Origin: Solirubrobacterales bacterium
GTDB taxonomy: Bacteria > Actinomycetota > Thermoleophilia > Solirubrobacterales > 70-9
NCBI GenBank assembly: GCA_023958085.1
Contig: JAMLGI010000002.1
Location: forward strand, 1-64,000
Direction: 5' to 3'
Length of the DNA: 64,000 nucleotides
The position numbers and the translations under genes were made by a program. Every line of letters begins with the position of its first letter. The stretch's first letter is position 1. This document shows, piece after piece, positions 53,784 to 59,060 of the stretch. The notes beneath the pieces were generated by a model. The model was given only the letters and a program-made list of their open reading frames with translations, made no database searches and was not told the origin of the DNA.

Positions 53784-54661
53784 GGCTTGATCAGGTCGTT
53801 GAGACCCTTTTCGACCTGATCGCTCAGGTCCGGAGGAAGTGCCTGCTGCACGTCCTCCGGGAGTTCCTGCTTCAGGCGGTCGGTCAGCTCGCCGCCGAGC
53901 CTCCCCGGGATCTCTTCCGGTTTCAGGCTGCTGCCGGTGCCGTCCGGGTTGCCGCCGGAACCACCCGGTTCGCTCCCGGTCGGACCGAGCAGATCGAGCG
54001 CCCCGCCAAGCGCCCCTCCGGCTCCGCCGAGCGAACCGCCTTCGAACAGGGTCGTGGCGTTATCGAAAAGCTCGACCATCACGCTCATCGGCATCACCTT
54101 GATCGCCAGCCGGGCGCCGGTCGCCGCCAGCGGCGAGAGCGAACCGCCGCGTTCGGCGTCGTCGGCCGCCCGGAGCAGCCCGGATCGGACCGCATCCTCG
54201 ACCTGCGTATCGGTGAGACCGTGATCCTCGGCGAAGGCCCGGCGCGAGCTTTCACCGGCCAGGGCCCGGGTCAGCTCCTCCCGACTCACACCCAGCTCGC
54301 AGGCCGCGCCGTCGATCGCCGCGAGGCTGAACCGTTCAGCGGTCTCCTCCACACCCTGGGGCGAACCCCACGGACGGGGGTCACAGGGGTCGGCGGCGGT
54401 GCCCGGACGGTAGTCGAGTCCACCAAGACCGATGTAGGCACCGCAGAGCACCAGCGCGGCCAGGACCGAGGCGGCCAGCATCAGGTAGCCGAGCCGTCGT
54501 CCGTCGTCGCCGGTTGCTGGCGGACGGGTCGGCGCCGGTTCGGTCGGTGGCTCGAGCAGCGGCTCGGTTGGATCTCCCGACCCGGAACCCGGCAACGGAC
54601 GGGTCGGTTCCCCGGCCCGTTCCTCCGGCAGTCGTTCGGTCGGATCTTCGCCCCGGTTCAC
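53780..54661 (-). CDS. Single-pass membrane protein of unknown function
   Basis: 293 residues. A Pro/Thr/Glu-rich cytoplasmic N-terminus, one transmembrane helix near residues 53-74 ([20 protein letters not shown]), then a helical extracytoplasmic part ([40 protein letters not shown]). The C-terminal [20 protein letters not shown] continues the helices. The GTG start overlaps the MFS stop (GTGA). No family was recognised. Its tight coupling with the MFS exporter hints at joint function. Confidence 0.6.
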
Positions 54662-56040
54662 AGGTCCAGCCTCCGGGTCATCCCGATCGGAACAAGGGCG
54701 AGCAGGCCGAACAGGGCCGAGATCAGAAAGGCCGGGGAGAAGGCGTGGGTCGCCGCCTGGTCGAGCTGGTCGGAGATCCCGGCGAGCACCGACTCCCAGG
54801 CCTGCCTTTCGACCGGATCGACCGGCATCGGCTCGAAGGCCGGAGCGAGGTCCGGGACCCGATCGGAGTCGCGATCAACCCGTCCGGCCAGCCGGGCGCC
54901 GAGCTCGATCTTGTCGGTCGGGGCTATCTCCGAGTCGAGCAGGATCGCGGTGCCGGCATCCAGCGCCGCTTCCCGCTGAACGTCGAGCTGGTGGGTGAAC
55001 ACCGGGGTCAGAATCAGCAGCCCGACCACCACCCCGAGATGCCGGGCGGCGATCGTCCAGCCGCCGTGAACGGCGGCCTGGGAACGGCCGTGGAGGGCGG
55101 CCTCGGTCAGCGAGGAGAGCACCAGCGAGAGACCGAACCCGGCCAGGATCTGGGGAGCGATCACCCAGATCACTTCGGCTCCCGGAAGCAGACCGAGTGC
55201 GGCCAGGCCGCCGGCCAGCAGGATCGCACCGGAACCGGCCCGCAGGCGGATCGACTCGATCCGGCGGCCGAATCGGGCCCCGATCAGGGCCGCCACCGGC
55301 AGCACCGAGACCACGATCGCGGCCTTGATCGGGCTGAGCTGCCAGCCCTCGATCAGGAGCAGCACGATCAGGAAGAGCGCGGCAGCGATCGCCGCCGAAA
55401 CCAGGGCGAGGGCGATGTTTGCCGGCAGGTGGGGTCGCTCCCGGCCCTGCGGTCCCACGGGAGCGAAGGAGAGCGAATCGGGGATCCTCCACTCGCGGGT
55501 TTCGGCGATCACGGTGTCCCTGAGCGGCACCCCGGCCAGAATCGCGATCGGCACCTGAATCAGGAAGATCGACTGCCAGGAGACCAGCTCGGTCAGAAGA
55601 CCGCCGATCCCGGGGCCGACCGCCGCCCCGATCGCTCCGGCCCCGACCCAGGCCATGATCGCCCGCTTCTCGGTGCCGTAACCGCTGATCATCAGCTCCA
55701 GTGCCGCGGTGACCGCCACCGCCCCACCGGCAGCCTGGACCATCCGCCCGGTGATCAGCGGCCCCAGACCGGTGGCCGCGGCGCAAACCAGGCTGCCCCC
55801 GGCGAAGACTGCGAGTCCGACCGCTGCCGAACGGCCCGGCCCGAAGCGGCGGGCGAGCCAGGCTCCGGGTACAGCCGCCACGGCCAGCACCAGGTTGAAG
55901 CTGATCAGCACCCAGGCGACCCCGAAAATCGAGCTGTCGAACTGCCGGAAGATTTCCGGCAGGGCGAGAACCACGATCGAGGAGTCGGCCAGGATCAGCC
56001 CGACCGCCCCGGCCAGCGCAGTTAGGCGGATCCGGTTCAG
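54658..56040 (-). CDS. MFS transporter of the DHA2 (14-TM) type, CTG start
   Basis: 460 residues if it begins at CTG 56040. Its first in-frame GTG (55974) would cut off half of helix 1, giving VVLALPEIFRQFDSSIFGVA. The upstream 22 codons read NRIRLTALAGAVGLILADSS and complete the helix, with no ATG, GTG or TTG. CTG 56040 overlaps the lytic transglycosylase stop as CTGA, like the ATGA/GTGA overlaps of neighbouring genes. Motif C-like GAGAIGAAVGPGIGGLLTEL and other DHA2 features support a drug-proton antiporter. A ~120-residue soluble stretch between late helices carries two Asp/Glu-rich segments. Confidence 0.75.
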   Translation of the reverse strand: MNRIRLTALAGAVGLILADSSIVVLALPEIFRQFDSSIFGVAWVLISFNLVLAVAAVPGAWLARRFGPGRSAAVGLAVFAGGSLVCAAATGLGPLITGRMVQAAGGAVAVTAALELMISGYGTEKRAIMAWVGAGAIGAAVGPGIGGLLTELVSWQSIFLIQVPIAILAGVPLRDTVIAETREWRIPDSLSFAPVGPQGRERPHLPANIALALVSAAIAAALFLIVLLLIEGWQLSPIKAAIVVSVLPVAALIGARFGRRIESIRLRAGSGAILLAGGLAALGLLPGAEVIWVIAPQILAGFGLSLVLSSLTEAALHGRSQAAVHGGWTIAARHLGVVVGLLILTPVFTHQLDVQREAALDAGTAILLDSEIAPTDKIELGARLAGRVDRDSDRVPDLAPAFEPMPVDPVERQAWESVLAGISDQLDQAATHAFSPAFLISALFGLLALVPIGMTRRLDL

Positions 56041-56660
56041 TAGCCCAGCTCCAGCCCGTACCTGTGACGGTACTCCCGCTGTTTCTCCAGCACCTTTTTC
56101 ACGTAGTTGCGGGTCTCGTCGAAATCGATGTCCTCAAGTCTCATCTCGGAGCCGCCCCAGCGCTCGGCCTGGGAGGGTCCGGCGTTGTAGGCGGCCAGGG
56201 CGGCGACCACGTCCCCGCCGAACTGATCGATCAGATGCCCGAGGTAGAAGGTTCCGTAGCGGATGTTCAGCTCCGGGTCCCGGAGATCGGAGAGCTCGAA
56301 GGTGTTGCCGCCGCTCAGCTTCTCGATCTCCCGGGCCGTGTCCGGGGTGATCTGCATCAGCCCCCGGGCATCGGCGTGGGAGGTCTGGTCGACGAAACGC
56401 GACTCGGTGTAGATCACCGCTGCGATCAGGGCGGCATCCACGCCCTTGTCTTCGGCCTGCTGACGGATCACATCGTCATGCCGAAGCGGCAGGGTCACCT
56501 CCTTGATGCCCTTCTCCGCCATTCCGGTCGCCACTACCACCGCGATCACTCCGACGGCGATCAGCCCGAACAGAATCAGCGCCGCCCGTCCGGCACCGGT
56601 CTTGCGAGCCGGCGCGGGACGGCGCTTCGACCGGGTTGCTGTGGGCTTGCGGCGGGCCAT
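56037..56660 (-). CDS. Membrane-anchored lytic transglycosylase (SLT domain)
   Basis: 207 residues from ATG 56660. A basic N-terminus precedes one helix (GRAALILFGLIAVGVIAVVV). The SLT domain has LIAAVIYTESRFVDQTSHAD with the catalytic Glu, then ARGLMQITPDTAREI and VVAALAAYNAGPSQAERWGG. It cleaves peptidoglycan between MurNAc and GlcNAc, forming 1,6-anhydro ends. It lies just after coaE and before the MFS gene in the same transcript. The open frame reaches 56735 but lacks a better start. Confidence 0.88.
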   Translation of the reverse strand: MARRKPTATRSKRRPAPARKTGAGRAALILFGLIAVGVIAVVVATGMAEKGIKEVTLPLRHDDVIRQQAEDKGVDAALIAAVIYTESRFVDQTSHADARGLMQITPDTAREIEKLSGGNTFELSDLRDPELNIRYGTFYLGHLIDQFGGDVVAALAAYNAGPSQAERWGGSEMRLEDIDFDETRNYVKKVLEKQREYRHRYGLELGY

Positions 56661-56676
56661 GACGGGACCCCACAGG

Positions 56677-57264
56677 CTAGTCGGTCGGTGGCCGTTCCCG
56701 GATCCGGTCAAGGAGCCGGGCCAGATCGGCCTCAAGGTCCTCCCGGGCGCCGTCGTTGACGATCACGAAGTCGGCCCGCTCTGCCTTTTCGTCCTGGTCG
56801 AGCTGTCGTCCGTCCCTGCCGGCGAGTCCGACCTGTCCTCGCGCCTCGGCCCGCTGCCGGCGGATCTCTTCGGCGGCGACAACGGCCACCGTGAAATCAA
56901 AACGATCCGCCATCTCGCCTTCGAACAGCAGCGGCACCTCGGCCACCGCGAACTCGGTCTCGGACGGAAGTCCGCCGAGCCAGCCGGACAGCTCCTCCCG
57001 GACCAGGGGATGAATCTGGTGTTCAAGCCAGGCCAGCTCCTCCCGGTCTCCGAACACCCGGGTCCCGATCAATTCACGGTCGGCCCGGTCTCCGACCACG
57101 GCCTCCCTGCCCCATCGCTCCCGCAGGCGGGAGAGCATCGGTTCGCGGTCGAGCAGATCGTGAACGACCCGGTCGGCCGAGATCGTGGCGGCCCCGAGAC
57201 GCCCGAGGGCGCCCAGAGCCTCCGACTTGCCGGCGGCTACGCCTCCGGTAAGCCCGATCGTCAG
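56677..57264 (-). CDS. coaE: Dephospho-CoA kinase, CTG start
   Basis: 195 residues if begun at CTG 57264. The first ATG in frame (57138) would remove the P-loop GLTGGVAAGKSEALGALGRL, which is essential; no GTG or TTG precedes it. CTG-ACG-ATC-GGG gives M-T-I-G-L-T-G-G, the normal CoaE N-terminus. The CTG overlaps the rpsA TGA stop (CTGA). Later motifs: ADRVVHDLLD, VFGDREELAWLEHQIHPLVR and VAEVPLLFEGEMADRFDFTV. It phosphorylates dephospho-CoA. rpsA-coaE order is common in actinobacteria. Confidence 0.88.
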   Translation of the reverse strand: MTIGLTGGVAAGKSEALGALGRLGAATISADRVVHDLLDREPMLSRLRERWGREAVVGDRADRELIGTRVFGDREELAWLEHQIHPLVREELSGWLGGLPSETEFAVAEVPLLFEGEMADRFDFTVAVVAAEEIRRQRAEARGQVGLAGRDGRQLDQDEKAERADFVIVNDGAREDLEADLARLLDRIRERPPTD

Positions 57265-58712
57265 GACTGTCCGTCCCCTTCGGCTTCGGCCTCTTCCTCC
57301 ACCGGAGAGTCGGGCTCCCCGGCTTCGGCAGCCTCATCGGTTTCTGCCTCGGCAGCGACTTCGACCTCAACCTCTTCGGCGGCCGCGTCGGCTTCCGCGA
57401 CTCCGGCTTCGGCCTGGACCTCGACCTCTTCGGCTTCGGTCTCCGGCTCGGCTTCGAGTGCTGCTTCCTCGGTTTCCTCAGTCACCGAGGCCTGTTCGGC
57501 CACGAACTCCTCGACCGCCTGCTCCTCCGGGGTGCCGGAGTGGGCGGCCAGGGCGGCGCCGAGATCCTTGAGCAGCATGTTCTGGCCTTCGACCCGCTTG
57601 ATCGAGAGCGAGAGCCGGCGGCGCTCCTCGTCGATCTCGAGGATCTTCACGTTCATCGTGGCGCCGAGTTCGACCACCTCGTTCGGGTTCTCGACGTGAT
57701 GATCCGCCAGCTCCGAGATGTGGACCAGTCCCTCTACCCCGTCGAGGATCTCGACGAAGGCACCGAAGGAGACCACCTTGGTGACCACACCTTCGAGCAC
57801 GTCGCCGGAACGGTAGGTGGAGACCACCCGCTGCCACGGATCTTCCTGGGTCTGCTTGAGACCGAGCGAGATCCGCTGGCGGTCGCGGTCGATGTCGAGC
57901 ACCTTGATCTTGACCGTGTCGCCGATCGCGACCACCTCGGAGGGATGGTTGACGTGGCTCCAGGAGAGCTCGGAGATGTGAATCAGGCCGTCAATCCCCT
58001 GAAGATCGACGAAGGCACCGAAGTCGACGATGTTCGAGATCTTGCCTTCGACCACCTGGCCGGGCTCGAGGTTGTCGAGGATCTGGTTGCGAACCTCCTT
58101 GCGCTCCTCCTCGAGGACCGCCCGGCGGGAAAGCACCACGTTGTTGCGGCTGCGGTTGAGCTCGATCACCTTGCACTCGAGGGTCTGGCTCATGAACTCG
58201 TCCAGGTCATGGACCCGGCGGATGTCAACCAGCGAGGCCGGCAGGAAGCCGCGGATGCCGAGATCCAGGATCAGGCCGCCCTTGACGACCTCGATCACGT
58301 TGCCCTCGACCGGTTCGCCGTTCTCGGCGGCGGCCTCGATCTTGCGCCACGCCTTCTCGAAGCGGGCCCGCTTCTTGGAGAGGATCAGCCGACCTTCGGC
58401 GTCCTCCTTGGTGACGACGAGGGCGTCGATCTCCTCGTCCAGCTCGACCTCTTCGGAGGTGTCGACTGACTTGCGGATCGAGAGCTCGGATGCGGGGATC
58501 ACACCCTCGGACTTGTAGCCGATGTCGAGCAGGACCTCGTCTCGATCGATGCGGACGACTTTGCCGTTTACGACATCGCCCTCCTCGAAGGAGACCATGG
58601 TCGCCGCGTAGTTTGGAACGATCCGGCCGTCGACGTTGACGAGAAGGCCGTTTGAGCCTTCGACCGGAACCCCCTCTGGGGCGTGTAGAACAGTTGAATG
58701 AGTAGTAGTCAC
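57261..58712 (-). CDS. rpsA: 30S ribosomal protein S1
   Basis: 483 residues with four S1 domains. Their cores are near VNGKVVRIDRDEVLLDIGYK (1), GNVIEVVKGGLILDLGIRGF (2), VEGKISNIVDFGAFVDLQGI (3) and LEGVVTKVVSFGAFVEILDG (4). The C-terminus is a ~100-residue acidic Glu/Ala tail. It unfolds and delivers mRNA in canonical initiation. The GTG start lacks a clear Shine-Dalgarno sequence. The gene has an unusually long (~900 bp) structured region upstream. Confidence 0.95.
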   Translation of the reverse strand: MTTTHSTVLHAPEGVPVEGSNGLLVNVDGRIVPNYAATMVSFEEGDVVNGKVVRIDRDEVLLDIGYKSEGVIPASELSIRKSVDTSEEVELDEEIDALVVTKEDAEGRLILSKKRARFEKAWRKIEAAAENGEPVEGNVIEVVKGGLILDLGIRGFLPASLVDIRRVHDLDEFMSQTLECKVIELNRSRNNVVLSRRAVLEEERKEVRNQILDNLEPGQVVEGKISNIVDFGAFVDLQGIDGLIHISELSWSHVNHPSEVVAIGDTVKIKVLDIDRDRQRISLGLKQTQEDPWQRVVSTYRSGDVLEGVVTKVVSFGAFVEILDGVEGLVHISELADHHVENPNEVVELGATMNVKILEIDEERRRLSLSIKRVEGQNMLLKDLGAALAAHSGTPEEQAVEEFVAEQASVTEETEEAALEAEPETEAEEVEVQAEAGVAEADAAAEEVEVEVAAEAETDEAAEAGEPDSPVEEEAEAEGDGQS

Positions 58713-58821: not shown

Positions 58822-59060
58822 GAGGGACCAACCCGGTGGTCGGCGGGTCCTGTCCACGTTTTTTCTTTTGGCATTCGCTCCCGCTCGGTGCCAAAAGCAA
58901 AAAACCCGGCCACCCGCCGAAGGGGCGCTGGTGGTTGACGGTGAAGGGACCAGCCTGGTGACCGGCGGGTCCTGTCCGCGTTTTTTCTTTTCGTACTCCC
59001 GGGACGACGGTCCGTGCGAAAAGCAAAAAACCCGGCCACCCGCCGGAGCAACGCTGGTGG
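58822..59060. repeat. Two tandem ~122-bp units, each a long hairpin
   Basis: Unit 1 hairpin 58841-58919, unit 2 hairpin 58963-59045. Each has an outer stem CGGCGGGT/ACCCGCCG and an inner A/T-rich stem GTTTTTTCTTTT paired with AAAAGCAAAAAAC (one bulged C). The tip of the inner stem differs: GGCA/TGCC in unit 1 and CGTAC/GTGCG in unit 2, so pairing is kept while the sequence changes. The T/A runs on both strands would suit a bidirectional terminator. Confidence 0.85.

What the first reader, a model, noticed from the sequence alone, without database searches (positions are those of the whole stretch)
56037..57264. Two genes (coaE and an MFS transporter) appear to start with CTG inside NTGA overlaps
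Seen: the first 42 codons of coaE, including its P-loop, and the first 22 codons of the MFS gene lie upstream of any ATG/GTG/TTG. In each case the only sensible start is a CTG that overlaps the previous stop as CTGA (57261-57264; 56037-56040). Elsewhere the same 4-base overlap occurs as ATGA (1063, 13164, 19068, 30041, 39053), GTGA (18874, 25858, 27828, 30247, 54658) and TTGA (35023). So all four NTGA forms occur in 64 kb. Inference: termination-reinitiation here tolerates any NTG, and standard gene callers will truncate such genes.
Basis: partly seen in the sequence, partly recalled or inferred. Interest (0 to 1): 0.75.

Follow-up and report, generated by a model that had tools for sequence, protein, structure and literature searches.

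The report
Conserved CUG/AUA starts overlapping stop codons
In a genus of uncultured actinobacteria, several genes, including the essential coaE and dnaB, appear to begin with codons (CTG, ATA) that annotation programs do not accept as starts, nearly all overlapping the stop codon of the gene before, so their proteins are likely mis-annotated and perhaps deliberately made in small amounts.

Summary
coaE (CTG 57264) and the MFS gene (CTG 56040) have no in-frame ATG/GTG/TTG for 42 and 22 codons. Those codons encode conserved protein (P-loop, first membrane helix) under purifying selection, and each CTG has a well-placed Shine-Dalgarno sequence. It is not a sequencing error: coaE has CTG here in 10 of 14 congeners, CTA in 2 and a nearby canonical GTG in 2. 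The MFS CTG without a following ATG is unique in its genus, where others use TTGA or CTGATG. In about two thirds of this genome I found about eight CTGA starts, against 119 ATGA, 99 GTGA and 30 TTGA in two genomes: CTG is used but rare. dnaB starts with ATA overlapping the rplI stop in all 15 congeners where the junction was found. The start-forming A looks selected: terminal Lys is AAA in 14/14 genomes, against 2/121 internal Lys codons. Three such pairs join a ribosomal-protein gene to a low-demand enzyme (rpsA-coaE, rplI-dnaB, rplS-lepB). I infer termination-reinitiation at near-cognate codons, acting at some sites as an attenuator. "Any NTG works" is too simple. Translation itself was not tested.

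The parts
57261..58712 (-). rpsA (ribosomal protein S1), upstream gene; stop TGA 57263-57261
   Evidence: S1 domains in Pfam and NCBIfam S1 models
57274..57282 (-). Shine-Dalgarno-like CGAAGGGGA inside the end of rpsA, 9 nt before the CTG
   Evidence: predicted anti-SD pairing -8.4 kcal/mol, aligned spacing 7, within the range of canonical NTGA starts; similar purine-rich motif kept in most congeners
57262..57264 (-). CTG start codon of coaE, overlapping the rpsA stop as CTGA
   Evidence: CTG in 10 of 14 congeners, CTA in 2, canonical GTG one codon later in 2
56677..57264 (-). coaE, dephospho-CoA kinase, 195 residues from the CTG
   Evidence: PF01121 102.8 bits full length against 70.9 from ATG 57138; codons 2-42 pN/pS 0.17 in the genus
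56037..56660 (-). SLT-domain (lytic transglycosylase) gene upstream of the MFS gene; stop TGA 56039-56037
   Evidence: PF01464, 95.8 bits; ATG 56660 is the likely start (inspection)
56045..56053 (-). Shine-Dalgarno-like TGGAGCTGG inside the end of the SLT gene
   Evidence: -7.1 kcal/mol, aligned spacing 5
56038..56040 (-). CTG start codon of the MFS gene, overlapping the SLT stop as CTGA
   Evidence: congeners have TTGA (5 genomes) or CTGATG (9 genomes) here; this genome alone in the genus has CTGA without a following ATG
54658..56040 (-). MFS (DHA2-like) transporter, 460 residues from the CTG
   Evidence: PF07690 86.5 bits full length against 81.7 from GTG 55974; codons 3-22 pN/pS 0.29

Best explanation
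coaE and the MFS gene start at the CTG of a CTGA overlap. The ribosome that finishes the upstream gene, helped by a Shine-Dalgarno sequence inside that gene, reinitiates on the overlapping near-cognate codon. Within this genus (67-14, Solirubrobacterales) this is a recurrent and partly conserved use: CTG for coaE, GH15, a class II aldolase, a PspC protein, vapC, probably lepB, and mobA and maa in a congener; ATA for dnaB. Where the upstream gene is a ribosomal protein (rpsA-coaE, rplI-dnaB, rplS-lepB), the weak codon probably acts as an attenuator, so that little enzyme is made from a heavily translated message. Shown here: the sequence, its conservation, protein-level selection on the extra codons, SD placement at the CTG sites, and codon bias at the dnaB site that points to selection. 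Inferred: actual initiation there, fMet as first residue, reinitiation by the same ribosome, and the attenuator role.
For: No canonical start for 42, 22, 74 and 19 codons in coaE, MFS, GH15 and dnaB, yet those codons are under protein-level purifying selection, pN/pS 0.17-0.29, and complete known domains. CTG or ATA is conserved among congeners sequenced by independent projects: coaE CTG in 10 of 14, dnaB ATA in 15 of 15 found, GH15 CTG in 6. SD pairing at coding CTGA sites (mean -6.8 kcal/mol, n=11) matches canonical NTGA sites (-7.0, n=248) and exceeds non-coding CTGA sites (-4.3, n=27; Mann-Whitney p=0.004). SD spacing fits the CTG in coaE and MFS. At rplI-dnaB the terminal Lys codon is AAA in 14/14 genomes against 2/121 internal Lys, and the stop is never TGA. 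About two dozen junctions between ribosomal-protein genes use canonical starts, whereas coaE, dnaB and lepB do not.
Against: No translation data. lepB could use its GTG 19 codons later, and the MFS case rests on one genome in the genus. dnaB has only a weak SD (-2.9 kcal/mol), and its codon-20 ATG has a stronger one at long spacing. An AUAA junction without SD did not support reinitiation in E. coli (PMC9955659). Species are not independent samples, so the Fisher p-value overstates the evidence. The ribosomal-protein pattern is post hoc and rests on three pairs. No control genus could be censused.
Confidence: 0.78

Rival explanations
1. The true coaE start is another near-cognate codon, ATC at codon 3 (ATC GGG CTT), and the CTG is only the last base of the rpsA Ser codon plus its stop.
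For: Two congeners have CTA instead of CTG while ATC at codon 3 is present in all of them. ATC/ATT seems to start one other gene in this genus.
Against: SD spacing is 7 to CTG but 13 to ATC, near the 95th percentile of canonical spacings. CTG is kept in 10 of 12 congeners without a canonical start. ATC is also kept as an ordinary Ile codon in other genera, so its conservation does not discriminate.
Confidence: 0.12
2. coaE and dnaB are made by -1 ribosomal frameshifting at the end of the upstream gene, giving S1-CoaE and L9-DnaB fusion proteins.
For: In both pairs the downstream frame is -1 relative to the upstream gene and open through the stop.
Against: No slippery heptamer is visible at CAGTCCTGA or GAGAAATAG (inspection). 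In G008 the frame is closed by TAG just before dnaB. In G005/G014 and in other genera coaE has its own canonical start. SD sequences at the CTG sites indicate initiation.
Confidence: 0.05
3. Sequencing or assembly error hides a normal start codon, or the genes really start at ATG 57138 and GTG 55974.
For: The assembly contains at least one probable frameshift (rpoB). The MFS CTG without following ATG is unique within its genus.
Against: The coaE CTG occurs in ten congeners assembled by different groups. The upstream codons carry the P-loop and evolve under protein constraint. The downstream canonical starts lack an SD. The MFS site has a good SD and aligns with TTG starts in five congeners.
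Confidence: 0.05
4. The near-cognate starts are real but neutral: synonymous drift at the end of the upstream gene with no dosage role.
For: The CTG of coaE lies in a TCC Ser codon, which is common in rpsA (129 of 340 internal Ser codons). Other CTGA sites (MFS, GH15, aldolase) follow genes that are not ribosomal and switch between codons in the genus.
Against: At dnaB the rare AAA and the avoidance of TGA persist in every species examined. Near-cognate starts sit at three of the four close ribosomal-protein-to-other-gene overlaps seen, the fourth being secY.
Confidence: 0.4

Closest known systems
Conserved non-canonical AUA/AUU starts in Staphylococcus: infC, ccpN, cvfC1, citZ (PMC13009471)
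   Same: Near-cognate start kept between species, with reduced expression (about 10-30% of AUG) and a proposed regulatory role.
   Different: Those sites rely on extended SD motifs and, as far as the passages read here show, not on overlap with an upstream stop. Here most sites are CTG, all but a few overlap a stop codon, and dnaB has only a weak SD.
Translational coupling by termination-reinitiation at -4 (NTGA) overlaps (PMC6728339, PMC12548453)
   Same: Identical gene geometry and an internal Shine-Dalgarno in the upstream gene.
   Different: Those papers treat ATGA and the general NTGA form; neither text contains CTGA or CUG. One E. coli test of an AUAA junction without SD was negative (PMC9955659).
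Rare CUG/AUU start switches in comparative start-codon evolution (PMC5622118)
   Same: Records occasional CUG and AUU starts in bacteria and archaea.
   Different: AUG-to-CUG there is about 3 per 100,000 ancestral starts, based on existing annotation. Here CTG or ATA is retained across a genus.

Membership tests
Gene with a non-canonical (near-cognate) start codon | No in-frame ATG/GTG/TTG compatible with the conserved N-terminus | tested here: met
   coaE, MFS, GH15, aldolase, dnaB; the upstream codons are under purifying selection in the four genes tested
Gene with a non-canonical (near-cognate) start codon | Start codon conserved among relatives | tested here: met
   coaE CTG 10/14, dnaB ATA 15/15 found, GH15 CTG in 6 genomes; not met for the MFS gene within its genus
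Gene with a non-canonical (near-cognate) start codon | Weak codon kept by selection although a canonical codon is reachable | tested here: inconclusive
   dnaB: AAA 14/14 against 2/121 internal, never TGA. coaE: last Ser TCC in 12/12 although TCA/TCG/TCT would give ATG/GTG/TTG, but TCC is common anyway. Species are not independent.
Gene with a non-canonical (near-cognate) start codon | Initiation at that codon shown by profiling or N-terminal sequencing | not testable with these tools
   no expression data for this lineage
Translational coupling by termination-reinitiation | Start and stop codons overlap (-4 nt) | tested here: met
   CTGA at 57264-57261 and 56040-56037; ATAG/ATAA at rplI-dnaB
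Translational coupling by termination-reinitiation | Shine-Dalgarno inside the upstream gene (common, not obligatory) | tested here: met
   coding CTGA sites mean -6.8 kcal/mol, as for canonical NTGA; weak at dnaB (-2.9)
Translational coupling by termination-reinitiation | Downstream expression depends on translation of the upstream gene | not testable with these tools
   needs reporter experiments
Programmed -1 frameshift fusion | Slippery site and uninterrupted -1 frame in all members | tested here: not met
   no slippery heptamer by inspection; frame closed by TAG in G008 dnaB

The most novel reading that the evidence does not exclude
In this genus the ribosome that terminates a ribosomal-protein gene is routinely allowed to restart on near-cognate codons (CTG, ATA, even CTA), and evolution has fixed such codons at rpsA-coaE, rplI-dnaB and rplS-lepB to set low levels of housekeeping enzymes: a conserved weak-restart dosage control for essential genes.
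Probability: 0.4. Interest if true: 0.78.

Novelty: new variant of a known kind. Interest (0 to 1): 0.6.

Why it matters
Gene callers that allow only ATG/GTG/TTG would delete the P-loop of CoaE, the start of DnaB and part of the first helix of a transporter in these genomes, so reconstructions from MAGs may inherit broken proteins. If the attenuator reading holds, start-codon identity at stop overlaps is a selected dosage control for essential genes. It would also give natural test cases for how strictly a reinitiating ribosome inspects the start codon, given that an E. coli reporter showed no reinitiation at an AUAA junction without SD.

Tried and rejected
Relaxed initiation machinery: infC is intact with a GTG start and has a few genus-specific substitutions of unknown effect. 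The initiator tRNA has the normal three G-C pairs; an earlier pattern search missed it because its T-loop reads GGTTCGAA. The anti-SD is normal in G000. Homology-only screen of stop-to-stop ORFs between two genomes: noisy, mostly out-of-frame alignments over upstream genes, so I turned to coding potential plus SD. rpoB CTGA in G000:C7 was rejected as a frameshift artefact; two further coding-positive CTGA sites with weak SD (G000:C1 187190-189148 minus, G001:C11 648604-649680 minus) were not counted. A non-overlapping CTG candidate (ArsB-like gene, G000:C1 near 431832 minus) was left open. The starts of the ATC/ATT gene in other congeners could not be read for the same reason. Paper searches for CTG starts in bacteria gave little beyond the papers cited.

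Full report
WHERE. The window is G000:C2:1-64000 of a 2.44 Mb assembly. Its nearest named relatives are Solirubrobacterales MAGs, among them 'Solirubrobacterales bacterium 67-14'. I call the group genus 67-14; the name rests on record titles and my knowledge of GTDB.

OBSERVATION. Read on the minus strand, rpsA ends ...CAG TCC TGA and coaE reads CTG ACG ATC GGG CTT ACC GGA GGC (LTIGLTGGVAAGKS, with the P-loop). The SLT gene ends GGC TAC TGA and the MFS gene reads CTG AAC CGG ATC CGC. The first in-frame canonical starts are codon 43 (ATG 57138) and codon 23 (GTG 55974). The extra residues raise the CoaE Pfam score from 70.9 to 102.8 bits.

RELATIVES, coaE. In 14 same-genus genomes (this one included) the position is CTG (CTGA) in ten and CTA (CTAA, rpsA stop TAA) in two; two have GTG one codon later. 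Most genomes read from other genera of the family have GTG or ATG two to four codons upstream. The CTG genomes come from independent projects, so a sequencing error is very unlikely for coaE.

RELATIVES, MFS. Five congeners have TTGA at the same spot, nine have CTGATG, and this genome alone has CTGA without ATG. Two genomes of another genus (G045, G047) also show CTGA without a nearby canonical start.

ARE THE EXTRA CODONS TRANSLATED? Upstream of the first canonical start, pN/pS is 0.17 for coaE, 0.29 for MFS, 0.25 for dnaB and 0.20 for GH15. That is similar to, or lower than, the value in the following part of each gene.

GENOME CENSUS. I took 1.58 Mb of this genome and 0.80 Mb of congener G001 and called genes by codon usage. 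At -4 junctions with canonical starts there are 119 ATGA, 99 GTGA and 30 TTGA. Of 138 CTGA junctions, 57 have a canonical start at the next codon (TGATG-type), and 11 show at least 12 coding codons before any canonical start. One of these 11 is a frameshift in rpoB and two have weak support. Credible sites in this genome: coaE, MFS, GH15 (C2:105475), class II aldolase (C1:339109), a membrane protein (C7:69540), a PspC protein (C7:52352, minus), vapC (C1, minus, near 429761; found by inspection) and, probably, lepB (C4:19185, minus). In G001: coaE, mobA (C11:449119) and maa (C11:621853). GH15 has CTGA in six genomes. The aldolase start is less well conserved: several congeners have GTG or TTG at the junction.

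SHINE-DALGARNO. Mean anti-SD pairing energy is -6.8 kcal/mol at coding CTGA sites, -7.0 at canonical NTGA sites, -4.3 at CTGA sites without coding extension, and -4.5 at random CTGA. For coaE the aligned spacing is 7 to CTG and 13 to the alternative ATC, and the downstream ATG has no SD.

dnaB. The same scan found dnaB starting at ATA within ATAG at the end of rplI. Every congener whose junction was found (15 genomes) has this ATA, with ATG only near codon 20; the other genera read have ATG just upstream of the conserved N-terminus. The terminal Lys codon of rplI is AAA in 14/14 genomes, while internal Lys codons are AAG in 119 of 121. The stop is TAG or TAA and never TGA, although TGA is about 70% of stops in these genomes and would create ATGA. 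In G008 a 7-nt duplication closes the frame just upstream of ATA, which argues against a frameshift fusion. A further gene of unknown function appears to start with ATC or ATT.

PATTERN. I mapped E. coli ribosomal proteins onto this genome. About two dozen junctions between ribosomal-protein genes use canonical starts, as does secY after rplO. The enzyme genes directly overlapping rpsA, rplI and rplS (coaE, dnaB, lepB) use CTG, ATA and, probably, CTG. The gene upstream of lepB was identified as rplS from its sequence and a BLAST match. This fits a weak start that limits the enzyme made from an abundant message. It is a post hoc pattern of three, and lepB could still use its downstream GTG.

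MACHINERY. IF3 is intact, and initiator tRNA and anti-SD are normal, so I do not claim a relaxed ribosome.

LITERATURE. Conserved AUA/AUU starts with about 10-30% of AUG activity are known in Staphylococcus (PMC13009471). Two papers on NTGA coupling do not mention CUG. An AUAA junction without SD failed in E. coli (PMC9955659). Switches from AUG to CUG are about 3 per 100,000 ancestral starts in annotated genomes (PMC5622118). The literature search covered open-access papers only.

VERDICT. The interpretation needs refining: near-cognate starts at stop overlaps are very probably real here, uncommon, partly conserved, and not limited to NTG. Whether they are a selected dosage control is an open and testable question.

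Noticed in passing
G000:C1:161260-162675 and 14 congeners: dnaB has no canonical start before codon 20; it appears to start at ATA overlapping the rplI stop (ATAG/ATAA) in every congener where the junction was found.
   Followed up: yes
G000:C3:75549-76433 and G001:C11:587520-588386: Gene of unknown function (no Pfam match) found in all 18 genomes of the genus appears to start at ATC in this genome and ATT in G001, at or just after the stop of the upstream gene.
   Followed up: partly
G001:C11:59550-60113: In G001 the coaE frame stays open into the following SLT gene (427 codons), a possible coaE-SLT fusion.
   Followed up: no
G000:C7 near 90430: rpoB is broken by a frame change in this assembly, probably a sequencing or assembly error.
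   Followed up: no
window 57261-57600; G000:C4 upstream of 19185: S1 and L19 of this genus carry long Glu/Ala-rich acidic C-terminal tails; IF3 carries DHPNAVAPDA-like repeats in its C-terminal tail.
   Followed up: no
window 58823-59060: Two interleaved direct-repeat families of about 54 nt (85-87% identical) upstream of rpsA, with a run of T or A in each unit; a similar peptide signature appears near G000:C1:16121, so the element may be dispersed.
   Followed up: partly
G008 rplI-dnaB junction (L266): A 7-nt GAAATAG duplication puts the rplI stop in frame two codons before the dnaB ATA, a natural experiment against the frameshift model.
   Followed up: yes
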